Position numbers and translations under genes: made by a program
The notes under the pieces: model-generated
What the model was told of the DNA's origin: nothing
Database searches by the model: none
Seen by the model: only the letters and a program-made list of their open reading frames with translations
Source of the DNA: a virus
Reading direction: 5' to 3' (one strand)
Virus record (IMG/VR): IMGVR_UViG_3300008261_000091
Location: 1-48,779 of that record
Length of the DNA stretch: 48,779 nt
Shown: in pieces, positions 6,995 to 48,779 of the stretch
How the letters are laid out: every line of letters starts with the position of its first letter
How positions within the stretch are numbered: position 1 is the first letter of the stretch

Positions 6995-7498
6995 ATGGAA
7001 CACCCAATCGCGGCAATTGAAAAAATACTTAATACTCTTGGTAGTAAGATTATCAAAGACAGATATGGTCTTGACTTGAAGTTTGAGGTTGATAAAGTAA
7101 ATGAACACCACTTCAAATCAAGAGACACCACTGATTATGTTATTCGTGTAAATGCTATTGGGGATAAGGTACCTTTTTTGATTAAAGATTTAAGTTATGA
7201 TGATACAATGTGGGATGAAGGTAGGTATGATGTCCCGTCTCATCTTGAAGAAATACTAACAAGTGCGGCTAACTACATTGATTTAAATTATAGTGTGGTG
7301 TTTAATAATGTTAGAAATCCGTACAAACATAAATGTGACGAATATATAATTCTAAAAAGTGTTGGAACAAAAATTTGTAAGGAATCAGGAATGACTGATG
7401 ACTCTTATTTTGGTGGTTTACCTGATATTGATAATGATGAATGGTGGAATGCTTTGAGTGATGAAGACAAAGAAATATTAAAATCTTTGTTTGGTTAA
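6995..7498 (+). CDS. Hypothetical protein, 167 residues
   Basis: Function unknown. The N-terminal helix (EKILNTLGSKIIKDRYGLDL) is followed by alternating strands and helices, and an acidic end with DNDEWWNALSDEDKEIL. It lacks the MK-hydrophobic tag but uses the same promoter box and spacing as the tagged genes. The helix is similar to the second module of the 5525 protein. The final helix could be a partner-binding segment. Confidence 0.75.
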   Translation: MEHPIAAIEKILNTLGSKIIKDRYGLDLKFEVDKVNEHHFKSRDTTDYVIRVNAIGDKVPFLIKDLSYDDTMWDEGRYDVPSHLEEILTSAANYIDLNYSVVFNNVRNPYKHKCDEYIILKSVGTKICKESGMTDDSYFGGLPDIDNDEWWNALSDEDKEILKSLFG

Positions 7499-18328: not shown

Positions 18329-18604
18329 ATGGGAACATTAGTAGAAACGGCATACGCTAATTATTTAACACAAGTCGTAACCGATTTGACAATAGGGGAA
18401 TTTAAAAATTTATTAATTAATGATGACGCATTTAATACCGAATGGGCCAATGGGTCAACAAGAGAATTAACTTTTGATGAAAGGTATAGAATTGCAGAAT
18501 CAATTGAAAATGTTAGGATTAATAAAGTTCAGAAGTACGGAGAGGCTTACATTACTTTACATCTTAACAATTTTAATATACCAAAACGAGTTATTTTAGA
18601 GTAA
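18329..18604 (+). CDS. Hypothetical protein, 91 residues
   Basis: Mostly helical (YANYLTQVVTDLTIGEFKNLL) followed by strand pairs (YITLHLNNFNI). Function unknown. It precedes the T9SS cargo gene by 10 nt, with ggag before that gene's ATG. Confidence 0.65.
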   Translation: MGTLVETAYANYLTQVVTDLTIGEFKNLLINDDAFNTEWANGSTRELTFDERYRIAESIENVRINKVQKYGEAYITLHLNNFNIPKRVILE

Positions 18605-18614
18605 GGAGATTTAT

Positions 18615-19808
18615 ATGAAGTTAGGTTTATTTATGTTGTTGATATTCCCATATTGGTTAATATCACAAACTTGTGTAACCATATCTGATGGAACATATGG
18701 TAATTCACAAACAACACCACTAGCACCAATATATGGTTTATACGATTATAGTTGGTCCTCAAGTATATATCGGGCTGCGGATATTGGTGCGGCCAAAACA
18801 ATAGGTTCCATTGCATGGTATGTTGATGGGTTCCAATCAGGGTATTCACAAACAGGTCCGTATACCTTCAATAATGTTCAAATATATTTTGCGTATACCA
18901 CTTTATCAGGTTGGGCTAGTACAAATAATGTATCGGGGGTTAATAGACTAACAGGAGTGAATGTGGCTCAAGGAATCACCTCTTGGACAAAAGTGTTTGA
19001 CGGTTCATTTACATTCAATGCCTCAGATGCTTGGAAAACCATAACTTTAACATCCCCGTTTAGTTATGATGGTGCGACAAATCTAATTGTACATGTTGAC
19101 AATAATGACGGTTCATATGCTTCAGGATACCCAATATTTCACTACACCAACTATAATACCGCAACCTCAACAAGAACAATGAAGTACGGAGCCCAAGACG
19201 GCTCAATGGGACCTACGTCAGGTACAAGGTTATATGCAAGACCCGACATTAAATTTTGTACAACATCGGCATTACCAATTGAATTGTTAGACTTTAAACC
19301 AACATATAAAAATGGGGTGGTTAACATTAAATGGGTTACTGCATCTGAAAAAAATAATGACTATTTTACTATTGAAAAAACAATCAATGGGGTTAGTTAT
19401 GAAACCATAGATACTGTAGATGCGGTCGGAAACAGTCAGACAATATCCGATTATAACTCATTTGATTATGATTTAAATTCTTCAGTAATCTACTATAGAT
19501 TAAAACAGACGGATATTGATGGTAAAAACACGATAACTGATTGGTATTCGGTTAATATAATTGATGAAATTAAAAATATAACAGTCACACCAAACCCTTT
19601 TAGTGATAATATTAATATAATGTTTGATTCGGATATCCGAGGACCACAAATAATCTGTATTACCGATTTAATGGGGAAAGTATTACATCAAGAAGAAATT
19701 AATATATCTATGGGAAGTAACTACTTCAACATAAAGTTGGAAAATTTTGATAAAGGAATTTATCTATTGAATTTTAATAAAATTATCTTTAAAATTGAGA
19801 ATGAATAA
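18615..19808 (+). CDS. Secreted protein with type IX secretion sorting domain
   Basis: A 397-residue protein. Residues 1-18 are a signal peptide ending WLISQ. Residues 20-210 form a Ser/Thr/Tyr/Gly-rich beta domain. Residues about 213-305 are the Bacteroidetes module that starts ALPIELLDF and contains EKNNDYFTIEK and YYRLKQTDIDG. Residues about 315-397 match the type A C-terminal sorting domain: VTPNPFSDNINI, then LMGKVL and DKGIYLLNF. The host T9SS would export and anchor it on the cell surface. It is a cellular-type gene, clearly host-derived. It might alter adhesion or superinfection; that is inference. Confidence 0.88.
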   Translation: MKLGLFMLLIFPYWLISQTCVTISDGTYGNSQTTPLAPIYGLYDYSWSSSIYRAADIGAAKTIGSIAWYVDGFQSGYSQTGPYTFNNVQIYFAYTTLSGWASTNNVSGVNRLTGVNVAQGITSWTKVFDGSFTFNASDAWKTITLTSPFSYDGATNLIVHVDNNDGSYASGYPIFHYTNYNTATSTRTMKYGAQDGSMGPTSGTRLYARPDIKFCTTSALPIELLDFKPTYKNGVVNIKWVTASEKNNDYFTIEKTINGVSYETIDTVDAVGNSQTISDYNSFDYDLNSSVIYYRLKQTDIDGKNTITDWYSVNIIDEIKNITVTPNPFSDNINIMFDSDIRGPQIICITDLMGKVLHQEEINISMGSNYFNIKLENFDKGIYLLNFNKIIFKIENE

Positions 19809-20670: not shown

Positions 20671-20877
20671 ATGAAAAAACTATTACTAATTTTACCGTTA
20701 CTTATCTCCTGTAAAACAACTAAGAAAGCTGAATGTGACGCCTATGGAATGGTGACTGTGTGTGACACAATTATTTTTGATGAACAACACATCCACTCAA
20801 GATTCAATAATAAGTGGGAATGTTATGAATTTCCGTCAGATACTTTAGAAATTGACAGAGTTTTAAGTTTAAAATAA
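20671..20877 (+). CDS. Small predicted lipoprotein, 68 residues
   Basis: MKKLLLILPLLISCKTTKK: a signal peptide with lipobox LISC, cleavage before Cys14. The mature part has further cysteines and a short alpha/beta region. It would be anchored in the envelope. Phage lipoproteins often block superinfection or act as spanin subunits; neither can be decided here. Confidence 0.72.
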   Translation: MKKLLLILPLLISCKTTKKAECDAYGMVTVCDTIIFDEQHIHSRFNNKWECYEFPSDTLEIDRVLSLK

Positions 20878-20883
20878 AACGTT

Positions 20884-21081
20884 ATGAAATTGATTAAAAG
20901 AAAATTGGCCAAACCTATAATGACATCATTTGTTTGGTCTATACCCGCAATAACATATATTATTTTGAAAATTTATAAAATTGTGGATTTTAATACTGAA
21001 TGGATATGGTGGGTTACTTTACCAACTTTACTAAGTTCTTGGGTGACTCTAAATTTTGAAATTAAAATAGAACAAAAATGA
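20884..21081 (+). CDS. Small membrane protein, 65 residues
   Basis: Two hydrophobic spans (about 14-32 and 39-57; SFVWSIPAITYIILKIY and WIWWVTLPTLLSSWVTL) with basic N-terminus KLIKRKLAKP. The stop overlaps the thyA start by 4 bases (ATGA). Function unknown. Confidence 0.65.
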   Translation: MKLIKRKLAKPIMTSFVWSIPAITYIILKIYKIVDFNTEWIWWVTLPTLLSSWVTLNFEIKIEQK

Positions 21082-22906: not shown

Positions 22907-23452
22907 ATGACAAAAGAAATCACACAAGAAGAAATCCAAGAGATTGAAAGATTAACTGGTGGGAAGATTGGGACACACACATTTGGACCAAACAACGAAC
23001 ATACATTAGAGAATTCATTTTTATCACCCGATGGTACATATATCGGTAGTATTGAGGAAGCTAGATGGTATGTTAATAATGAAATGATGGTAGATGAAGA
23101 ATATCCACACGGTGTGGCTGCCGTAATCACTAAAGAAACTTATGGAACTGATAACCCTATTATTGAAGGGATGTATGGTTATACTCACAGAGGTGGTAGT
23201 ATGTTTAGAATTGGTGACAGATTGTTCGATTCAAAATATAAACCAGTTAAAGAAGATTATCCTGAAGATGAATGGAATGGATATGAAACAAGATTCAATG
23301 AATTATATGAAGATGAAGATGAACTTGGTAAAAAGTGGATGGATGACGATGGTATATCATATGTCATACCATTTAGATTAAGAGGTTCAAAAATTATTGA
23401 AACAATGGAAGAGGCGTTTGATGCCGCTAAAAATATGTCAAATTATTTATAA
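22907..23452 (+). CDS. Hypothetical protein, 181 residues
   Basis: Acidic soluble protein. N-terminal helix with QEEIQEIERLTGG, then Gly/His-rich strand regions (YGYTHRGGSMFRIGDRLFDSKY) and a very acidic segment (LYEDEDELGKKWMDDDG). No tag or signal. Function unknown. Confidence 0.7.
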   Translation: MTKEITQEEIQEIERLTGGKIGTHTFGPNNEHTLENSFLSPDGTYIGSIEEARWYVNNEMMVDEEYPHGVAAVITKETYGTDNPIIEGMYGYTHRGGSMFRIGDRLFDSKYKPVKEDYPEDEWNGYETRFNELYEDEDELGKKWMDDDGISYVIPFRLRGSKIIETMEEAFDAAKNMSNYL

Positions 23453-27567: not shown

Positions 27568-28708
27568 TTGTATTAGATTTAACATAAATTTTTCTAATGA
27601 TGTTTGAATGAGTATCTTCAGGGTCTTGGGCCATTTCATAAAGTTTACCAATCTTTTTCGCCATTTTTTCTCCTACAAAATTAAACAATTTAATTTCATT
27701 TTTATAAAAATTTAATGGGTTATTTTGATACTTTGAAAATTTTGATAAGTTTTTATAAAAATATTTACCTTTATCACTTTCAGGGTCAATCCCTCCCATG
27801 AATTCCATAAATTTTAAAAGACTGTCCTCTTCCCCCGATATTAATAAATGTTTTAACATCTCACCCTTATCGTTAGTTAAGTTTATATAACCCAACTCTA
27901 AGATTAGATTAATAATCTCATCATCACTTTCAGGGACATCAATATCACTGTCACGTAAACGAGTTTTAATAGTTTCAATATCAGATTTCAACTCTGACAC
28001 TAAGTCCTCAAACGTATAGTTTTTTAAAACCATAAATTCTTTAAAAGTTTTATCATTTAAAAGGAATTCTAAAAATTGAGTTTTATTGACATCGGATAAT
28101 ATCATTCTTGAGGCAACTTCAGTTGGTTTAACTAAAGTCTCAGTTAATGTTGCCAAATAAAGATAATGGAAAAATATTCTTAAAGGTTTAATACCAAATG
28201 CCCCGAAATTGGATGTTGTACCATAGTCAACAATATGTGTCAATGGTTTTTCAGGTTCTTTAAAATTGTCATATGCGTGTTTTAATTCGTGAGATAACGA
28301 AGGTAAAATCTCTGTTTTTTCATCTTTTAAAAATTTAATTATTTCAGACATATTAACATCCCTTTCAGGTAAATAAAGAGAAACGGAAATGTATAATTCT
28401 GAAAAATCTTGTAAAGACATACTCACAAATTTTTTAATGTTATGAGTATATCTTGGCGAAAAACCCATACCTGCCATTAAAATTTTATCGGTATCAACAA
28501 AATCCAACTCAATCCGAGCATGAACTTTTTTAATATTAAGTTCATTGATTTGTAAATTAGTACTGAACCCTATATCAAATTTACTATCCTCGTCAAATGT
28601 TTCATTTGATTCATACGATAATTGTTTTAATAAATCTTTATATAATTTCTCACCTGACAACAAAATGTTTTCAGGAACACCTAACGCCTCTAATATATAT
28701 TTTTTCAT
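27551..28708 (-). CDS. HExxH metallopeptidase-like protein with N-terminal tag
   Basis: A 385-residue protein. It starts MKKYILEALG; I-L-E fits the tag rule. HELKH at 140-144 followed by PTEVASR (Glu197) is a zincin signature. N-terminal strands (residues 45-115) and a long helical C-terminal half (200-370) flank it. It is coupled by a one-base overlap to the tagged GH19 gene upstream, so the two are probably made together. Substrate unknown. It could mature or defend the virion, or act in the host after injection. Confidence 0.75.
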   Translation of the reverse strand: MKKYILEALGVPENILLSGEKLYKDLLKQLSYESNETFDEDSKFDIGFSTNLQINELNIKKVHARIELDFVDTDKILMAGMGFSPRYTHNIKKFVSMSLQDFSELYISVSLYLPERDVNMSEIIKFLKDEKTEILPSLSHELKHAYDNFKEPEKPLTHIVDYGTTSNFGAFGIKPLRIFFHYLYLATLTETLVKPTEVASRMILSDVNKTQFLEFLLNDKTFKEFMVLKNYTFEDLVSELKSDIETIKTRLRDSDIDVPESDDEIINLILELGYINLTNDKGEMLKHLLISGEEDSLLKFMEFMGGIDPESDKGKYFYKNLSKFSKYQNNPLNFYKNEIKLFNFVGEKMAKKIGKLYEMAQDPEDTHSNIIRKIYVKSNTNEKRT

Positions 28709-29547
28709 TATGCTACTCCAAATGATTTTGATGCCTCAATGGCTTTATTTCTATGACCACTTCGTTTTTTTCTTGCGTTTTTGTCGGCAAAATAACTTGC
28801 GGCATCTTCTTTACTTGAAAATTTAGGTATACTTGATGGTGATTGACCATCTAATAAAAATGTAACCGCAATTTTTGCAGCAATGTCGTTTCTATTTAGC
28901 ATTTCAGGATTTGACTCAAGACTCACCCCTGAAAGTTGACCGTATTTTCTGTAATTACCTCTTCCAGTCAACTGATTAAATCCTCTACCTCTAAAATTCC
29001 ACCCATCACCACCTCCTTGATTACCCGCAATTTTTGCGTAAACTAAATTAAAGAACTCTTTTGCGTTACTTTTTAACTTATTTAGTTCACCATCGGAAAA
29101 TTTACTAACTCTTGAACCAAAAATTTTTCTAATTCTTGAATTATCTGTATTAGCGTATGAAACCTCACCTTTAGGTTTAAAATTGGATTCTTTTTTAACG
29201 ACAGATAACATACCTATTTGAGCTAAAGGGTCGGTTATTCCCTTTTTTTTCATTTCATCAATTAATAAAGAAATATTATTTTTTTGAATACTATCAAAGT
29301 TACCTAAAAGTTTAACTTTACCAAATGACCCTGAACCCTGAACATTTTCAGTACTATCAACAGGTTCATCTGAATTGTCGGTGGATGATGAATCGGTAGG
29401 TTCCGTTGTTTTTGCGTTCTTTATACCTTTTAGTATTAAGTTACCAATAACACTTCCTGTATCTCTATCTGTATCAATAAAATCGGATTCAATTAAAGAC
29501 TGTCTAATTAAAAACTTTTTTTGACTCTCAGTTATAACTAATTTCAT
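28708..29547 (-). CDS. Tagged GH19 (chitinase/lysozyme-like) peptidoglycan hydrolase
   Basis: A 279-residue protein. Residues 1-20 are a tag with two candidate sites, MKLVITE and RQSLIE. A low-complexity Ser/Thr/Asp linker (50-75) follows. The GH19-like domain (about 82-279) has KKESNF (Glu120) and KGEVSY (Glu128) as catalytic acids and NFRGRGFNQLTGRGNY as substrate-cleft motif. It hydrolyses peptidoglycan. Tag and linker suggest a virion-associated lysin used on entry; the 34023 protein is the more classical endolysin. The start at 29547 is fixed by the tag. Confidence 0.85.
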   Translation of the reverse strand: MKLVITESQKKFLIRQSLIESDFIDTDRDTGSVIGNLILKGIKNAKTTEPTDSSSTDNSDEPVDSTENVQGSGSFGKVKLLGNFDSIQKNNISLLIDEMKKKGITDPLAQIGMLSVVKKESNFKPKGEVSYANTDNSRIRKIFGSRVSKFSDGELNKLKSNAKEFFNLVYAKIAGNQGGGDGWNFRGRGFNQLTGRGNYRKYGQLSGVSLESNPEMLNRNDIAAKIAVTFLLDGQSPSSIPKFSSKEDAASYFADKNARKKRSGHRNKAIEASKSFGVA

Positions 29548-29564
29548 TTTTTTTATCTTTTTAT

Positions 29565-29571
29565 ATAAATA
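29565..29571 (-). promoter_or_regulatory. TATTTAT box for the tagged GH19 operon
   Basis: On the minus strand gTATTTATataaaaagataaaa precedes the start at 29547 by 17 nt. It is the one short-tag gene with the longer spacing. Confidence 0.47.
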
Positions 29572-29599
29572 CTTCCCTATCATTAAAGTTTATATAAGA

Positions 29600-34929: not shown

Positions 34930-36690
34930 ATGAATAAAATATCAAAAATATCGTTATTCTTTGGGATTATAGGTTTAGTTTCATTTTTAACGATGCATAC
35001 CTTAATATATACCGAATTAATGTTAGTTACGGAGAGTGTTTTAAGGTTTAGTTTTTATTCTAAAGCGTTCATTGTTTTTTGTTTAATAGTTTTTATTATT
35101 GAATACCTAAAAAGAAATAAGGTTATTGAAATAGAATCTGAATATACTAAAAAACTAATTGATGTTTTAATATCCCAATCTCATAATCCTTTGTTTTATG
35201 TTGGTAATACTATTGATGGTGCTAAAATATTAACAAATGAAGTGACTGAAACAATAAACACTGATAGATGTTCCATATGGTTATATAATGAGGATAAAAC
35301 ATCAATAATTTGTGAACAATTATTCGTTAAAAGTGAAAATAAATGGTATAGTGGAACTGAATTATTTAAAAAAGATTTTGAGTCTTATTTTACGTCATTA
35401 ATATATAATCCAATAATAATTGCCAATGATGCTGAGACTCATCAGGCGACAAATTGTTTTAAAGATAGTTACCTTAAACCATTAGGTATTAAGTCTATGT
35501 TAGACGTTCCCATAATATATGGGGGTGATATTATAGGCGTTATCTGTATTGAAAGTCTAACTAAACGAGAGTGGACTAACTTAGAAGTTAATTTTGCGCA
35601 AATTTTATCATCACTTTATTCATTTGCGTATTCAGTTAAAATATCAAATAACGTAAGTAAAAATATTAAAGACATTGAAGGATTTATTGACTATTCAGTA
35701 TTGGTTAGTAAAGCGGATAAAAATGGTAAAATAACTTATGTTAATAAGAGGTTTGAAGAAGTTTCAGGTTGGTCTTTATCTGAAGTTTTAGGTCAAGACC
35801 ATAATATTGTTAATTCAGGGGCTCACCCAAAAAAATATTGGTCCGATATGTATAAAACAATATTAGTGGATAATAAAATATGGAACAATGTCGTAACTAA
35901 TAAAAATAAAAACGGTGAATTGTATTGGGTTGATTCATATATTAAGGCCGAATTTGATAGCGACAATAACCTTACAGGATTTATGTCAATAAGATATGAT
36001 GTAACAGAGTTAATGAAAACTTTAAAAGAGATTGACAAAAAAAACACCTATTTAGAGCATGCGGCAAAAATACTAAGACACGATATGCACTCAGGGATAA
36101 ATACTTACATCCCAAGAGGGTTGAGTTCACTAGAACGACGATTAACTAATGATGATATTGAAAGGTTAAAAATTGAAGGTCCTCTTAAAATGTTGAGGGA
36201 AGGGTTAAAACATTCGCAAAAAGTATATAAGGGGGTTTATGAGTTTACTAATTTAGTTAAGAAAGATGCTGTTTTAGAAAAAACTGTTTGTAACGTAAAA
36301 GAAATATTAGATAGTTACTTATCAAGTACATCTTATAAGTCACAAGTCGTATTAGAAGAGTTACCTACATTAGAAGTTAATGAATCTTTATTTTGTACCG
36401 CAGTTGATAATCTAATTAGAAACGGGTTAAAATATAATGATAGTGATACTAAATTTGTAAAAATTTATAGTGAAGAAAGTCACATTATCATCCAAGATAA
36501 TGGTAGAGGGATAACCCAAAAAGACTTTGAGAAATTATCTCAACCGTATACTAGAAAGGAAGGACAAAAAGAATCTGGTACAGGGTTGGGTTTAAATATT
36601 TGTATTGCAATACTTAAAGAACATGGTTTTGAGATATCTTGTGAGAAGAACAAAATAGGGACCAAAATAAAAATAAAAATAAAAAATTAA
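34930..36690 (+). CDS. Membrane sensor histidine kinase (GAF-PAS-HisKA-HATPase)
   Basis: A 586-residue protein. Two membrane spans (about 7-27 and 40-60), a GAF-like domain (about 85-240; LDVPIIYGGDIIGVICIES), a PAS domain (about 255-365; KITYVNKRFEEVSGW), dimerisation helix with phospho-acceptor His384 in LRHDMHSGI, and HATPase: NLIRNGLKYND (N box), DNGRGI (G1) and GTGLGLNI (G2). It autophosphorylates and passes phosphate to the response regulator encoded 3 nt downstream. The signal is unknown. Codon use and AT content match the phage genes. Confidence 0.93.
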   Translation: MNKISKISLFFGIIGLVSFLTMHTLIYTELMLVTESVLRFSFYSKAFIVFCLIVFIIEYLKRNKVIEIESEYTKKLIDVLISQSHNPLFYVGNTIDGAKILTNEVTETINTDRCSIWLYNEDKTSIICEQLFVKSENKWYSGTELFKKDFESYFTSLIYNPIIIANDAETHQATNCFKDSYLKPLGIKSMLDVPIIYGGDIIGVICIESLTKREWTNLEVNFAQILSSLYSFAYSVKISNNVSKNIKDIEGFIDYSVLVSKADKNGKITYVNKRFEEVSGWSLSEVLGQDHNIVNSGAHPKKYWSDMYKTILVDNKIWNNVVTNKNKNGELYWVDSYIKAEFDSDNNLTGFMSIRYDVTELMKTLKEIDKKNTYLEHAAKILRHDMHSGINTYIPRGLSSLERRLTNDDIERLKIEGPLKMLREGLKHSQKVYKGVYEFTNLVKKDAVLEKTVCNVKEILDSYLSSTSYKSQVVLEELPTLEVNESLFCTAVDNLIRNGLKYNDSDTKFVKIYSEESHIIIQDNGRGITQKDFEKLSQPYTRKEGQKESGTGLGLNICIAILKEHGFEISCEKNKIGTKIKIKIKN

Positions 36691-38114: not shown

Positions 38115-39986
38115 ATGAGTAAAATTATTGGAATTGATTTAGGTACAACAAATTCGTGTGTTGCGGTAATGGAAGGTAATGAACCTATTGTTATCCCAAA
38201 CACTGAAGGTAAAAGAACTACACCATCAATTGTGGGGTATGTGAATGAAGGGGAAAGAAAAGTGGGTGACCCCGCTAAAAGACAATCTGTGACAAACCCA
38301 ACTAAAACTGTTTATTCAATTAAAAGATTTATGGGGTCAACCTACGACGAATCTAAAGACGAAGTTGGTAAAGTTCCGTATTCCGTAATTAAAGGTAAGA
38401 ATAACTCACCTAGAGTTAAAATTGATGGTAAGGAATACTCACCACAAGAAATTTCAGCAACTATCCTTCAGAAAATGAAAAAGACGGCTGAGGACTATTT
38501 GGGTACTACAGTTACTGAGGCGGTTATTACTGTTCCTGCGTACTTTAATGATGCTCAACGTCAAGCAACTAAAGAAGCGGGTGAAATTGCGGGATTAAAA
38601 GTTAGACGAATTATCAATGAACCAACCGCGGCGGCATTGGCTTACGGACTTGATAAAAAATCAAAAGATGCCGTTGTCGTTGTATTTGACTGTGGTGGTG
38701 GAACTCATGACGTTTCTATCCTTGAGTTAGGTGATGGTGTTTTTGAGGTAATGGCTACTGATGGTGATACTCATTTGGGTGGTGATGACTTTGACCAAGC
38801 AATTATTGATTATTTGGTTGGAGAGTTTAAAAAAGAACATAATATTGACCCAAGTCAGGACCCAATGGCATTACAAAGACTGAAAGAGTCTGCTGAAAAA
38901 GCAAAAATTGAGTTGTCTTCATCATCATCAACCGAAATTAATTTACCATATTTAATTCCTGTTGATGGAATCCCAAAACATTTAGTGTTAACATTAACAA
39001 AATCTAAATTTGAACAACTTGTTGATGATTTGGTTAAAAGAACTATTGAACCTTGTAAAACAGCGTTGAAAAATGCGGGTATTAAAACAACTGATATTGA
39101 TGAAATTATATTGGTTGGGGGGACAACAAGAATTCCCGCAATTCAAGAGGCGGTTAAAAACTTCTTCGGTAAAGAACCTTCAAAAGGGGTTAATCCTGAT
39201 GAGGTTGTTGCGTTAGGTGCGGCAATTCAAGGAGGTGTATTGGCTGGAGATGTTAAAGATGTCTTGTTATTAGACGTTACACCACTTTCATTAGGTATTG
39301 AGACTATGGGTGGGGTGTTTACTAAGTTAATTGAATCTAACACAACAATCCCAACTAAAAAATCTCAGGTATTCTCAACAGCAGTTGACAATCAACCAAG
39401 TGTTGATATTCATGTATTACAAGGTGAAAGAGCGATGGCCAAAGACAATAAAACTATTGGTAGATTCCAATTGACCGATATTCCACCATCACAAAGAGGA
39501 GTCCCTCAAATTGAAGTGACTTTTGACATTGACGCTAATGGTATTATTAATGTATCGGCAGTTGATAAAGGAACAAATAAAGTTCAATCAATTAGAATTG
39601 AGTCTTCATCAGGTTTATCCAAAGAAGAAATTGATAAAATGAAGGCAGATGCCGAAGCAAATGCTGAATCAGACCAAAAGGCGAGAGAAGAAGTTGAATT
39701 AATTAACAAAGCGGATTCTACAGTATTTCAATCTGAAAGGTCTTTAAAAGACTTAGAGGAAAAAATATCAGAAACTGATAAGAATGAATTAACAGAACTT
39801 ATCAGTAGTTTAAAAGAATCTGTAGATAAAAAAGAGTTAACTATTTTGGAATCTAAAATGGAAACATTAAACAATAAATTCCAATCAGTTTCTCAAAACT
39901 TGTATGAGAATTCTAATAATGAATCAACCAACGAATCAACAAATGATACTGATTTTTCAGATGTAGAATTTGAAGAAGTCAAGTAA
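38115..39986 (+). CDS. dnaK: Hsp70 chaperone DnaK
   Basis: A full-length 623-residue Hsp70: ATP-binding [13 protein letters not shown] (5-17), [35 protein letters not shown], the interdomain linker [13 protein letters not shown], the substrate-binding beta domain and a helical lid with Asn/Ser-rich tail. Two deviations: the phosphate-2 motif reads [10 protein letters not shown] instead of DLGGGTFDVS, and the end is EEVK rather than EEVD or EEVK-like bacterial tails. No DnaJ or GrpE is in the window, so it probably uses host partners for folding phage proteins. Confidence 0.97.
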
Positions 39987-43680: not shown

Positions 43681-44268
43681 ATGAACAAACGTTTAAACGT
43701 GTTAAATGAAAATAAAGTCAAAGAATTTTTCAATAAACACAAAGAATCAATAAAAAAAACATTCTTAGAAGAACTTAAAAATTCAAGTGATGATGCTAAA
43801 TCAGCATATTCTAATTTAATTAAATTGGTTAATAGTGGGGAATCAATTAGTGAAGAAGAACGTGAAAAAATTGGTAATGAACTTAAGAGTGTATTTAAAA
43901 GAACTTTAACTAAATTAGGTATGGCGGGTATATTTTTGTTACCTGGTGGTACTATATTTTTAATATTAATGAAACTATTTAAAAAGAAAAAATCAAAAGT
44001 TAATGATTTACCATTTGACGAAATAAATGAGGGTAATAAAAAAATTCGTGTGTTTAGTGAAAATACCGAATCTGATGAATTAAAATGGCACAGAGATAGA
44101 GAGGATAGATTAGTCACAGTCCTTGAAGGTCAAGGATGGGAAATACAAATGGATAACGAATTACCAAAAAGTCTTACAAAAGGCCAAAAATATATAATAC
44201 CTGAAGGTGTATATCACAGAATAATTAAAGGACAAGGTAATTTAAAAGTATCCATAGAATTTATTTAG
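43681..44268 (+). CDS. Tagged LPGG-membrane and cupin-like protein
   Basis: A 195-residue protein. Start MNKRLNVLNENKVKEF with V-L-N-E; helical region to 75; one hydrophobic segment MAGIFLLPGGTIFLILMKLF (81-100) resembling the LETM1-type LPGG span; and a C-terminal cupin-like domain with WHRDREDRLVTVLEGQGW (136-153), LPKSLTKGQKYIIPEGVYHR. His137 and His174 would be metal ligands. Such domains are seen in phage structural proteins I recall. Overlaps the convergent GMP reductase gene by 8 bases. Confidence 0.72.
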   Translation: MNKRLNVLNENKVKEFFNKHKESIKKTFLEELKNSSDDAKSAYSNLIKLVNSGESISEEEREKIGNELKSVFKRTLTKLGMAGIFLLPGGTIFLILMKLFKKKKSKVNDLPFDEINEGNKKIRVFSENTESDELKWHRDREDRLVTVLEGQGWEIQMDNELPKSLTKGQKYIIPEGVYHRIIKGQGNLKVSIEFI

Positions 44269-45283
44269 AAAACCTTTTTAACGCATTCTCAGTGATAAAA
44301 ACATATTGGGATTCTCTAAACTCAGATAAAGTCCTTGAATTAGTGTAGGACATTGCTGATTTAAGATAATCCTCAAAGTTTTCAACCCAAGAACTTAATT
44401 TATATTCAACCTTATTAAATTTAGATATCCCTTCAGAAGTTTTTAATACTGGTCTATTCCATTTTCTTTGAACTTCTTTGGTTGACATACCCCTAAAATT
44501 TTTATACATGTGTTTTCTAAGGTACGGACACTTATCCCAAATTTTAACTGAAGTTTTATAACTGATTGGGATTTTTTTGAATAGTTTAGTTTGAGAACAA
44601 GACTCTAAAGTTTGATTTAATAATCCTCCTAACATAACATAATCGGCACCTAACATAATCGCTTTAATTATGTCATCGTAATTCCTAAACCCACCATCGG
44701 CAACTATGTTTGTAGTGTAATTAGATAATTGTTTAATCCAAAAACATTCACTTATTAATGATGCCATCGGATAATGAACACCTGTATTTGCTGAGGTTAA
44801 ACAACCACTACCACCACCAATGCCAACTCTAACATAATCAACACCAATCTCACAAAAACGTTTAAATGTTTCAGGATTAGCAATATTCCCAACCATAAGT
44901 TTGTGAGAATCGGTCGGTCTCATTTCAATAAACCTTTTAGATAAAGTGTGGATTTTTTCCATATGACCATTTGCAATGTCCACCAAAATATTTTTTGGTT
45001 CGGTCTTTTCAGGTAATAACTCTAAGTACCACTCAAATTCATCCAAAGACAGTGAAAAAAACGAATTAGTGTCAACACTTTTAACACCTCTAGGTAAACA
45101 AACAACTAAATTATTTTTAGTAAAAATTTCTTGATTATCGTAATCAATTACAGTATCCATTGGGGAAACAATAATTGGTAATTTATTGTTTTCATCTTTA
45201 ACATTAATCTCACTTCTTGAATTTATTGATGAAATTGATTCTGGAATAATTGTAATGTCTTTAAAATCAAATTTTTGTTCCAT
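44261..45283 (-). CDS. guaC: GMP reductase / IMP dehydrogenase family enzyme
   Basis: A 340-residue TIM-barrel enzyme: VSPMDTV (39-45), VGIGGGSGCLTS with catalytic Cys161, a flap-like region NTGVHYPMASLISECFW, ADGGFRNYDDIIKAIMLGAD and GMSTKEVQRKW. The length and lack of CBS domains fit GMP reductase (GMP to IMP, NADPH) more than IMPDH. Start at 45283, one base after the thioesterase stop. It would rebalance purine pools during infection. Confidence 0.82.
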   Translation of the reverse strand: MEQKFDFKDITIIPESISSINSRSEINVKDENNKLPIIVSPMDTVIDYDNQEIFTKNNLVVCLPRGVKSVDTNSFFSLSLDEFEWYLELLPEKTEPKNILVDIANGHMEKIHTLSKRFIEMRPTDSHKLMVGNIANPETFKRFCEIGVDYVRVGIGGGSGCLTSANTGVHYPMASLISECFWIKQLSNYTTNIVADGGFRNYDDIIKAIMLGADYVMLGGLLNQTLESCSQTKLFKKIPISYKTSVKIWDKCPYLRKHMYKNFRGMSTKEVQRKWNRPVLKTSEGISKFNKVEYKLSSWVENFEDYLKSAMSYTNSRTLSEFRESQYVFITENALKRFSK

Positions 45284-45284
45284 A

Positions 45285-45707
45285 TTAGTTTTTTGTTTCT
45301 TCGTTTTTAATTGAGTCAATCATAGTTGTTATACGTTTAATTGATTTTTCTTTTAATGGTAATGGCGCTCCATCTTCATCAATATACACAAATTTAGTGT
45401 GAGTTTTTAATACAATATATTGTTTTCCTGTTCTAACATTATGCGCTCTGGCCTCAATATATAAAGTCACAGATGTGGTTCCAATAGATGATGGCCACCC
45501 AAATATTTTTAATAACTGACCTTCTTTTGACGGTTTTTCAAAAACGCATTTATCTATAGATACTGTAACCATTCTAGGGGTGTCACATAATTGCATTGCG
45601 TAGGCCACAGCAGATGCATCTAACCACGCCAAAAGTTTCCCACCAAACAAATTTCCGTGAAATCCTAAATCAGATTTTTTAATAGGGTGGGTGTTTAATA
45701 ATTCCAT
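45285..45707 (-). CDS. Acyl-CoA thioesterase (YciA-like hotdog fold)
   Basis: A 140-residue protein: GFHGNLFGGKLLAWLDASAV with Asn and the helix Asp as active site of the hotdog fold, then VTVSIDKCVFEKP and TVTLYIEA-like strands. It hydrolyses acyl-CoA esters. A start 18 nt earlier (45725) would overlap the upstream gene; 45707 is 2 nt past that stop. It lies between DUF2452 and GMP reductase in one operon. Confidence 0.85.
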   Translation of the reverse strand: MELLNTHPIKKSDLGFHGNLFGGKLLAWLDASAVAYAMQLCDTPRMVTVSIDKCVFEKPSKEGQLLKIFGWPSSIGTTSVTLYIEARAHNVRTGKQYIVLKTHTKFVYIDEDGAPLPLKEKSIKRITTMIDSIKNEETKN

Positions 45708-46149: not shown

Positions 46150-47151
46150 ATGCAAGAACACGGTTATAGAATTGAATTCATTAGTAGATTACTGAAAAGA
46201 AAAGTGTTTCAGTATTCAGGTGATTTTTATCAATTCCCTAACCCAAGAAAAGAAGGTATTACATATGAATTCAAATACCGAGTTAAAAAAGTTAACGACA
46301 TCAAAATGATGATTCATACTGGTGATTGGAAACCTGTCATATTTTTGGAGGTTGAGCTTTTTGATTTTGATGATGAAATGGATTATACTTTTAAAAATCT
46401 TTTAAAGGCATTAAGGGGTTCTGATAATGTGGAAGGACTTTTAGATATTGTTGCAAAACCCACATTATGGGAAATAAAAGGAGAAATCAGGGAATATTTG
46501 ATGTCTGCAATAGGGTTTGAGGGGACTATCGCGGTTACTAAAACCGACATACAATTCAAAGAAACCGAGAGTATTAATGAAACTAAGGCACACAGATTAC
46601 CAATTCAAAAAATGATTAAAGACGTTGTTTCTATATTAAAGAAAAATCAAGAGGGTGAATTTTATTTACCTGAAGATATTAATGATGAAATGGTATATAA
46701 TTTTACGAATGTTAAAGATATTTCAGTTGAGTTAACCGTTAGAAAAGATGACGACATAAAAAGATTTGCTGTTAATGGAAATTATGTTAAAGACCAAGAT
46801 GTTATTGAAGTTTTAGTTGTTGTTAATCCTGATGAAAATATTAATAAATTACTTTACGATATTATTGGCGAACTAAATGATTTGTTTGCTCACGAATTAG
46901 AACACTACAGACAATATAAATCGGGAGAGTTTGAGTTAGGGGGTAATGCGGATATTGAAGACCCATTAGAATATTACACAAGACCTGAAGAAATTAAAGC
47001 ACAATTAAAAGGGTTTAAACGATTATCAAAAATTCGTAGGATACCTTTAAATGCAACAATTAGAAATTGGTTTGAAACTCATGAAGATATTCACCATTTA
47101 AATAATAAAGATAAGGAAAAAGTGATAAACACTTTGTTACAAAACGCTTAA
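46150..47151 (+). CDS. HExxH metallopeptidase-like protein, two modules
   Basis: A 333-residue protein. Residues 1-135 form a beta-rich domain without tag (MQEHGYRIEFISRLLKRKV). An E-S-I-N-E at 140-144 marks the module border, followed by a basic helix. The second domain has AHELEHYRQYKSGE (His248, Glu249, His252) and YYTRPEEIKAQ (Glu280 or 281 as third ligand). Zinc peptidase is likely by motif. It converges with the gene at 47148 with a 4-base overlap. Confidence 0.75.
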   Translation: MQEHGYRIEFISRLLKRKVFQYSGDFYQFPNPRKEGITYEFKYRVKKVNDIKMMIHTGDWKPVIFLEVELFDFDDEMDYTFKNLLKALRGSDNVEGLLDIVAKPTLWEIKGEIREYLMSAIGFEGTIAVTKTDIQFKETESINETKAHRLPIQKMIKDVVSILKKNQEGEFYLPEDINDEMVYNFTNVKDISVELTVRKDDDIKRFAVNGNYVKDQDVIEVLVVVNPDENINKLLYDIIGELNDLFAHELEHYRQYKSGEFELGGNADIEDPLEYYTRPEEIKAQLKGFKRLSKIRRIPLNATIRNWFETHEDIHHLNNKDKEKVINTLLQNA

Positions 47152-47777
47152 TTTTGTAATTTACTAATTAGTTTCTTAAAAAATTCACTTAAAACTTTAC
47201 CTGATAAAGTAATTAATTTTGACATCCCGATTGACGAAACAAATAACATAGTATCGTCATATGTAACTTGACCTGTTTGCACTAAGTTTATAATTGGTCC
47301 TAGTGATGGTATCATAAAGGCGTAAGATAACATTGTCACCATACTACCAACATTAATATCAATTGATTTTAAAAATGAAATAAAAGTTTTCTTTAAATTT
47401 TTAGATTTATTAAGTGCGATTTTAAATACATCAAACAAACCTTTTTCTTTAATTTTATCAATAATATCACCAATAAAAGTTCTATTATTCATAAAAATAG
47501 TTCCTACAATACCTAATAAAATTAATGTCGTATCTCTATCACTTAATTCAGGATACTCGCCTGATAAAAAATCATTAACTGGTTTCATAAAACCACCAAT
47601 ACCCGCTCCCCAAGTAATTAAAAATCCAAGATTGTTTGAAAACTCATCTTTAGAAAATTCTGTAATTCGTTTAAAAAGATTATAGTTTTGTTTCACATCA
47701 TCTTCTATTTCGTTATTAAGAGACTCAACAATAAGTTTTCTTTTTTGTTCTTCAGTAATTAAAATTGTGGTTTTCAT
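47148..47777 (-). CDS. Tagged multi-span membrane protein
   Basis: A 209-residue protein. Start MKTTILITEEQKRKLIVES, the short tag with two extra residues and a second basic helix as in the GH19 tag. Then four or so hydrophobic segments (about 49-68, 83-98, 140-165, 170-195) with Gly/Ser-rich packing. A targeting peptide on a membrane protein is unusual for a capsid protein; it could be an injected channel or a structural membrane-active protein. Confidence 0.72.
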   Translation of the reverse strand: MKTTILITEEQKRKLIVESLNNEIEDDVKQNYNLFKRITEFSKDEFSNNLGFLITWGAGIGGFMKPVNDFLSGEYPELSDRDTTLILLGIVGTIFMNNRTFIGDIIDKIKEKGLFDVFKIALNKSKNLKKTFISFLKSIDINVGSMVTMLSYAFMIPSLGPIINLVQTGQVTYDDTMLFVSSIGMSKLITLSGKVLSEFFKKLISKLQN

Positions 47778-47823: not shown

Positions 47824-48609
47824 ATGTTTAAACCAAAATTACAAGAAAAGGATAGAATTAGATTATTAAATATGGAAGGTGAAACCAAACCTTACCCTGG
47901 TTGTTATGGTGTAGTTAGAGGTGTATTTAGAGACCCTGACGATGGTTCTGAAGCTTACTATGTTAATTGGGATGATGGTGATAAAGAAAATATTGGTAAC
48001 ATCATATCAACCAATAATCTATTCTCAACTACAGACAGATGGATGTTAATTAACAGAGCAAAATCCCCAATTGAAGAGAAATGGTCTCAAAAATATAAAA
48101 AAAGTATTGATTGTAAAAACCCAAAAGGGTTCTCTCAAAAAGCTCATTGTCAAGGAAGAAAAAAAAGAAAGGTAAATGAAGACCGTGATATGGATACCTT
48201 TATTAAAAATGCCGATGTCGTTAAATACTTTAAAATGAATAATAAAAATTACCTTTTGGAATTAGTTAGATTTTTAAAATTAATTAAAAAGTCGGGTATA
48301 GTTAATATGTTTGGAGCTTCTCCGTTTTTATATATGGGTAGAGATTATATTGATAGACACTATGGTGATGGAACGATAGGCGACGATGAAGCGTTTGAGG
48401 AAGTATTAGATATGGCAGATGATGCTAGAAATATAATGATTATGGTCACAATGAATCTAATTGAAGATAAGTACAAAATTGATTCAGAAAAATTAGGTGA
48501 TGATGAAGACGAGGATTCTATGGAACAAAGTAAAATATTAAGATTGGCTAATAGACATATTAAAGATTTGGCAAGTAGAGTATTAAGAATCTATATGACA
48601 AGTTTTTAA
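47824..48609 (+). CDS. Probable virion protein with SH3-like and Cys motifs
   Basis: A 261-residue protein. Residues 5-50 look like a KOW/SH3-type beta barrel (GVVRGVFRD, YYVNWDDGDKENIG). Residues about 78-116 carry IEEKWSQKYKKSIDCKNPKG and FSQKAHCQGRKKRK, a two-cysteine basic motif I recall from structural proteins of large T4-like phages. It is followed by VNE and a long acidic helical region. The motif resembles that at 43056 in being a short Cys-containing basic block. Function unknown. Confidence 0.75.
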   Translation: MFKPKLQEKDRIRLLNMEGETKPYPGCYGVVRGVFRDPDDGSEAYYVNWDDGDKENIGNIISTNNLFSTTDRWMLINRAKSPIEEKWSQKYKKSIDCKNPKGFSQKAHCQGRKKRKVNEDRDMDTFIKNADVVKYFKMNNKNYLLELVRFLKLIKKSGIVNMFGASPFLYMGRDYIDRHYGDGTIGDDEAFEEVLDMADDARNIMIMVTMNLIEDKYKIDSEKLGDDEDEDSMEQSKILRLANRHIKDLASRVLRIYMTSF

Positions 48610-48612
48610 TTG

Positions 48613-48779
48613 TTATGGTATTGTGAGAAAAACAGGATTTTGTTCACCAGCATATAAACCAAGAATATTAAAATCGTAAAACTCAATGGCCTCAATCTCA
48701 TCCATTCCGTCCCTTTCAACTAAAACATCAATTATTTTACTTTTAGAATAAAGAATACGAGGACCGTTACCAAACTCCT
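48613..48779 (-). CDS. Partial conserved hypothetical gene at window edge
   Basis: Minus-strand open frame running off the window end; only the last 54 or so residues are visible, ending GEQNPVFLTIP. It contains ERDGMDEIEAIEFYDFNILG, a pattern I recall from conserved phage and bacterial proteins of unknown function. The start lies outside the window. It converges with the gene at 47824, with 3 nt between stops. Confidence 0.7.
   Translation of the reverse strand, partial: EFGNGPRILYSKSKIIDVLVERDGMDEIEAIEFYDFNILGLYAGEQNPVFLTIP

What the first reader, a model, noticed from the sequence alone, without database searches (positions are those of the whole stretch)
18615..19808. Phage-encoded cargo for the host type IX secretion system
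The gene has a signal peptide, a Bacteroidetes surface-protein module and a type A T9SS C-terminal domain (NPFSDNINI ... KGIYLLNF). No T9SS machinery is present, so it would use the host's. The phage may thereby display a protein on the infected cell surface, for superinfection exclusion, aggregation or altered attachment. It also predicts that hosts have a T9SS.
Basis: partly seen in the sequence, partly recalled or inferred. Interest (0 to 1): 0.72.

Follow-up and report, generated by a model that had tools for sequence, protein, structure and literature searches.

The report
Phage protein using host's secretion system
A phage of Bacteroidota-type bacteria carries a gene whose protein has both address labels (front and back) needed for the host's own type IX secretion machine to carry it out of the infected cell; this kind of gene was reported once before in a glacier phage, but it turns out to be common in large phages, which mostly use a shortened version of the back label.

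Summary
Window 18615-19808 encodes an intact 397-aa protein: signal peptide ending before Gln18, beta-sandwich domain (19-214), FN3-like module starting LPIEL (220-318), and a type A T9SS C-terminal domain (319-397). The CTD passes the curated cut-offs of TIGR04183 and PF18962, is predicted as seven strands, and keeps the loop glycine (G354) and strand-7 lysine (K393). The gene is identical in a second contig and sits among phage genes, so host contamination is unlikely. No SprA homologue was found in it or in nine other phage records; all six Bacteroidota controls have one. Export by the host T9SS is therefore the best reading. Surface display, superinfection exclusion and aggregation are untested; type A cargo can also be released.

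Phage-encoded T9SS cargo was described in 2020 (Cryophage), so the kind is known. New here: over 100 viral stretches encode relatives, including 460-640 kb phages, and about 80% of those measured carry a ~50-aa short CTD (59 of 74, against 0 of 46 cellular proteins with the same module), resembling the Prevotella intermedia short CTD. Short CTDs also occur, rarely, in cellular genomes, so they are phage-enriched, not phage-specific. The window protein is in the long-CTD minority.

The parts
18615..19808 (+). gene for the 397-aa phage-encoded T9SS cargo protein (P0001)
   Evidence: intact ORF, identical in second contig
18603..18609 (+). Shine-Dalgarno-like AAGGAGA upstream of the ATG
   Evidence: sequence; inferred role
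18615..18665 (+). Sec signal peptide, residues 1-17, cleavage before Gln18
   Evidence: pattern/hydrophobicity only
18669..19256 (+). N-terminal beta-sandwich domain, residues 19-214 (predicted effector/ligand-binding part; least confident part of the model)
   Evidence: relatives in viral contigs L003/L045/L047 and in Cloacimonadota/Bacteroidota genomes; model
19272..19568 (+). FN3-like LPIEL module, residues 220-318, common in T9SS cargo of Bacteroidota
   Evidence: found in 89 of 198 Bacteroidota genomes; FN3 folds Z about 10-11
19569..19805 (+). type A T9SS C-terminal sorting domain, residues 319-397, seven predicted strands
   Evidence: TIGR04183 and PF18962 above cut-off; strands 319-326, 332-339, 343-350, 356-364, 367-374, 381-387, 390-396
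19674..19676 (+). [quoted passage not shown]
   Evidence: motif role from PMC11285876
19791..19793 (+). Lys393 codon, middle of strand 7 (the near-invariant lysine)
   Evidence: role from PMC10994853 and PMC11285876

Best explanation
The gene is a phage 'moron' that encodes a type A T9SS cargo. In an infected Bacteroidota cell the protein would cross the inner membrane by Sec, lose its signal peptide before Gln18, be recognised through its C-terminal domain by the host SprA-PorV translocon, cross the outer membrane, lose the CTD to PorU, and end up linked to surface lipopolysaccharide or released, presenting the N-terminal beta-sandwich on its FN3-like stalk outside the cell. Shown here: intact gene, phage context, domain architecture, predicted CTD fold and key residues, wide recurrence of the architecture in phages. 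Inferred: secretion, cleavage, final location. Weakly inferred: it changes what the infected cell exposes or binds (for example by hindering later phages or by binding surface glycans); this purpose is a guess, at roughly 35-40%.
For: CTD above both curated cut-offs. AlphaFold gives seven strands in the CTD with block pLDDT about 79-89 for most of it, falling to 68 at the very end; the best PDB match is PorU, itself a CTD protein, but its alignment is loose (TM below 0.25). Gly354 and Lys393 sit where the literature places the functional motifs. Identical gene in a second contig. Flanking region holds phage genes: endonuclease VII, RNA ligase, polynucleotide kinase, Tad6 anti-Thoeris, Acb1-like, endolysins. 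Same architecture in many viral contigs; of 50 records checked, 35 carry the short CTD, 16 carry PF18962 above cut-off, and 17 carry a large-terminase match. 62 of 66 recognisable signal peptides have Gln at the expected +1 position. No SprA in the phages, with working controls.
Against: No secretion experiment. Host unknown, so a compatible T9SS is assumed; CTDs are not always interchangeable between species (PMC11285876). The window has no capsid, portal or terminase gene found; it is a fragment. The PF18962/TIGR04183 hits stop short of the last profile positions (64/75 and 59/72), so strand 7 rests on the model. N-terminal domain function is unknown and its model is only moderately confident.
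Confidence: 0.8

Rival explanations
1. Host DNA or chimeric assembly: the gene belongs to a bacterial chromosome, not the phage.
For: All the domains are also found in cellular Bacteroidota/Cloacimonadota genes.
Against: Same gene and flanks, 99.99% identical over 21 kb, in an independent contig; phage genes on both sides; gene GC 33.5% against window 30.6%; parallel cases in 460-640 kb phage genome records with terminase.
Confidence: 0.03
2. Virion protein: an FN3/Ig-type tail or capsid decoration, with the CTD resemblance being only a shared Ig-like fold.
For: FN3/Ig domains are common on phage virions; Foldseek also lists tail proteins among weak matches.
Against: A signal peptide would send it out of the cytoplasm before assembly; the CTD matches by sequence profile, not only by fold; the gene is not in a structural cluster in the window.
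Confidence: 0.06
3. Passenger gene without benefit, recently picked up from the host and decaying.
For: The window protein is among the few with the ordinary cellular long CTD, consistent with recent pick-up.
Against: Intact frame; the same architecture recurs in many divergent phages with conserved signal peptide and C-terminus.
Confidence: 0.1
4. Secretion-route decoy: the CTD protein occupies PorV/SprA and lowers secretion of host adhesins or phage receptors, giving superinfection exclusion by jamming.
For: T9SS/gliding mutations (sprA, gldM, gldN) made Flavobacterium columnare resistant to its phage (PMC9233685), so reducing T9SS output could exclude rivals.
Against: No sign of a stalled or uncleavable design; a whole N-terminal domain is kept, which a decoy would not need.
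Confidence: 0.08

Closest known systems
Cryophage T9SS-labelled cargo (PMC7468147, Nat Commun 2020)
   Same: Phage genes carrying the T9SS type A sorting domain, proposed to use the host's system, superinfection exclusion suggested.
   Different: Those are an endoglucanase, a GH39 and a PA14 protein; here the N-terminal part is an uncharacterised beta-sandwich plus FN3-like module.
TIGR04183 / PF18962 type A CTD cargo of Bacteroidota
   Same: Signal peptide, C-terminal 7-strand domain, loop glycine and strand-7 lysine, LPIEL module.
   Different: Encoded by a phage without any SprA homologue found.
Prevotella intermedia short CTDs (PMC11969387, 2025)
   Same: The majority of phage relatives end in a similar ~50-aa three-strand CTD with glycine, glycine, lysine conserved.
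   Different: The window protein has the long form; the phage short-CTD profile is its own sequence family, found strongly in only 9 of 395 genomes of one sampled class and in none of 395 sampled across the phylum.
UniProt A0A6J5M2J1 'Secretion system C-terminal sorting domain' [uncultured Caudovirales phage] and A0A6J5NL19
   Same: Phage proteins with related predicted fold; one already auto-annotated with the domain.
   Different: Not studied, low identity (A0A6J5NL19: 25%).

Membership tests
T9SS type A cargo (TIGR04183/PF18962) | C-terminal sorting domain above curated cut-off, at the extreme C-terminus | tested here: met
   25.3 > 23 and 33.6 > 27 bits; residues 324-389 of 397
T9SS type A cargo (TIGR04183/PF18962) | Seven-strand Ig-like CTD | tested here: met
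   predicted, seven strands 319-396
T9SS type A cargo (TIGR04183/PF18962) | Conserved loop glycine (L-beta3-beta4) and lysine in strand 7 | tested here: met
   G354 in loop 351-355, K393 in strand 390-396
T9SS type A cargo (TIGR04183/PF18962) | N-terminal Sec signal peptide | tested here: met
   by hydrophobicity/pattern, Gln at +1; SignalP not available
T9SS type A cargo (TIGR04183/PF18962) | SprA/PorV-dependent secretion and PorU cleavage | not testable with these tools
   needs experiment
Phage-encoded T9SS cargo | Gene lies in a phage genome | tested here: met
   phage gene content, second identical contig; no terminase or capsid gene found in this fragment
Phage-encoded T9SS cargo | Host has a T9SS | not tested
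   host not identified
Short-CTD cargo | About 50-aa three-strand CTD after the LPIEL module | tested here: not met
   the window protein has the long form; no A6 match in its sister record G001

The most novel reading that the evidence does not exclude
Large phages of Bacteroidota routinely remodel or sabotage the infected cell's exterior through the host T9SS, and have favoured a minimal three-strand CTD that lets them load varied N-terminal domains onto SprA/PorV, possibly outcompeting host cargo and blocking rival phages whose receptors depend on T9SS.
Probability: 0.15. Interest if true: 0.75.

Novelty: new member of a known kind. Interest (0 to 1): 0.5.

Why it matters
It shows that phage use of the host T9SS is not a single curiosity but recurs in many large phages, gives a strong host clue (a T9SS-bearing Bacteroidota or relative), and makes phage action outside the infected cell testable in a lab strain such as Flavobacterium johnsoniae. 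The short-CTD bias gives natural examples of a minimal T9SS signal, useful for asking what SprA and PorV really need.

Tried and rejected
Phage-specific short CTD: first suggested by 0 full matches in 395 genomes sampled across the phylum, then rejected when 22 of 395 genomes of one class matched, nine of them strongly; the eight loci read lie in ordinary-looking chromosomal surroundings. Short and long CTDs as provable homologues by profile comparison: only the motif-B segment aligned, probability 11%. Isolated phages with the architecture: none in the phage record collection, only four uncultured huge phages. No PDB chain matched by sequence; no PHROG family for the protein. Fold of the N-terminal domain: no specific match; the VIA list was filled by the FN3/CTD part for the window protein, and by FN3 and general beta-sandwich matches for L003. 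dN/dS: not possible, the one close copy is identical. Papers on phage T9SS cargo beyond Cryophage: none found in the held library.

Full report
Observation. The gene at 18615-19808 (+) is an intact 397-codon ORF. Its C-terminus passes the curated cut-offs of TIGR04183 (25.3 against 23 bits) and PF18962 (33.6 against 27), and it is the only TIGR04183 match in the record. The start MKLGLFMLLIFPYWLIS|QT fits a Bacteroidota signal peptide with Gln at +1 (pattern only).

Is it phage DNA? An independent IMG/VR contig of 61,146 bases carries the same gene at 100% and the surrounding 21 kb at 99.99%. The two records differ by at least two indels (window 7169-7353 and 48510-48720 are absent from the other), so they are separate assemblies of near-identical phages. 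The window holds endonuclease VII, RNA ligase, polynucleotide kinase, endolysins, thymidylate synthase, a metallophosphoesterase, anti-Thoeris Tad6 and an Acb1-like gene. No terminase was found in the sister record and no capsid or terminase among the PHROG hits of the window; both are fragments. Several genes have relatives in a 232 kb viral contig that has a terminase and also carries the closest architectural relative. Contamination is therefore unlikely.

Anatomy. AlphaFold on an alignment of window and fetched relatives gives mean pLDDT 77 and seven strands in residues 319-396, the count described for type A CTDs. [quoted passage not shown] both positions are reported as conserved, and the loop and C-terminal motifs as functionally relevant (PMC11285876; PMC10994853). 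The best Foldseek match in the PDB is PorU of Porphyromonas gingivalis, which itself carries a CTD, though the alignment is loose. Residues 220-318 resemble FN3 domains (Z about 10-11). Residues 19-214 form a beta-sandwich with relatives in surface-type proteins of Cloacimonadota, Bacteroidota and a Delongbacteria genome; its ligand is unknown and the model is weakest there.

Machinery. SprA_N (PF14349) gave no match in the window, its sister contig and eight larger phage records, and matched in 6 of 6 Bacteroidota genomes. If the protein is secreted through a T9SS, the machine is the host's.

How widespread. A scan of IMG/VR with the LPIEL module gave 103 related stretches, the best 80 kept. 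Of 74 non-redundant complete-start ORFs, 66 had a recognisable signal peptide and 62 of these had Gln at the expected position. Uncultured phage genome records of 462-642 kb also carry such proteins, and two of them plus a 508 kb viral contig share a ~200-aa signal peptide-plus-CTD protein.

Long and short CTDs. Measured from the end of the LPIEL module, viral tails fall into two groups, about 50-61 aa and 95-104 aa (one outlier at 138): 59 of 74 short. Of 46 cellular proteins found by the same module none was short (Fisher p about 2e-20, though the sequences are not independent; 22 further cellular hits lacked the anchor motif and were not measured). A slightly different measure gave 68 of 80 viral tails at 47-58 aa. 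Viral loci were collected by patterns in the module, and confirmation used the window sequence with a long CTD, so the search should not favour short ones. A profile of the short CTD (A6) matches phages at up to 76 bits, including a 634 kb record that was not in the alignment. It gave only partial matches of 22-26 bits in 395 genomes sampled across the phylum, but in 395 genomes of one class it matched 22, nine of them at 45-68 bits; the eight loci read look chromosomal. So the short form exists in cells but is rare there: 92 of 118 genomes carry PF18962 matches, most of them in dozens of copies. AlphaFold of the L003 relative gives three strands in the short CTD. This is how the short CTDs of Prevotella intermedia are described, and those support cleavage and glycosylation and are modelled to bind PorV like long ones (PMC11969387). 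The conserved columns of the phage short CTD are two glycines and a lysine, which I read as motifs B, D and E.

The window protein belongs to the long minority. Its N-terminal domain and module are 37-45% identical to those of L003, which has the short CTD, so the two C-terminal types can sit on the same front end.

Mechanism and purpose. Export by Sec then SprA-PorV, with CTD removal, is the best-supported route, inferred from the known system. Final location is open: type A CTDs can give anchoring or release (PMC12618676). T9SS and gliding mutations made Flavobacterium columnare phage-resistant (PMC9233685), so phages have reason to touch this surface, but nothing here shows superinfection exclusion.

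Known or new. Cryophage was reported in 2020 with three T9SS-labelled genes and the same suggestion (PMC7468147), and a phage protein in UniProt already bears the domain name. This gene is a new member of a known kind. The wider survey and the short-CTD bias were not found in the papers searched, which covers open-licence PMC papers only.

Noticed in passing
window 3354+, 9720+, 13635+, 15490+, 15875+, 17569+, 28708-29583(-), 47148-47777(-): Otherwise different proteins share an N-terminal motif like MK-[LIV]-I-[IL]-[TS]-E-x-Q; 9 of 112 ORFs in the window fit the pattern, 0 of 308 in the 232 kb relative G002. Could be a packaging or targeting tag.
   Followed up: partly
window 22907-23452: Tad6-family type I Thoeris inhibitor (PF25188, 50.7 bits), three kilobases downstream of the cargo gene.
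   Followed up: no
window, one ORF not pinned down: An ORF matches the anti-CBASS protein Acb1 (PF23474, E 1.5e-4).
   Followed up: no
window 20671-20877: Small 68-aa protein with a lipoprotein-type signal peptide (LLISC), and a membrane-like protein at 20884-21081 next to it.
   Followed up: no
window 38115-39986 and 34930-36690: Full-length DnaK/HSP70 (849 bits) and a GAF-PAS-HATPase sensor kinase in a phage.
   Followed up: no
window 44261-45319(-): IMP dehydrogenase/GMP reductase-like protein.
   Followed up: no
L216, L217, L218 (two huge phages and a 508 kb viral contig): A ~200-aa protein family with signal peptide, small beta domain and full type A CTD recurs in separate records.
   Followed up: partly
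window 7169-7353 and 48510-48720: Stretches absent from the near-identical sister contig G001.
   Followed up: no
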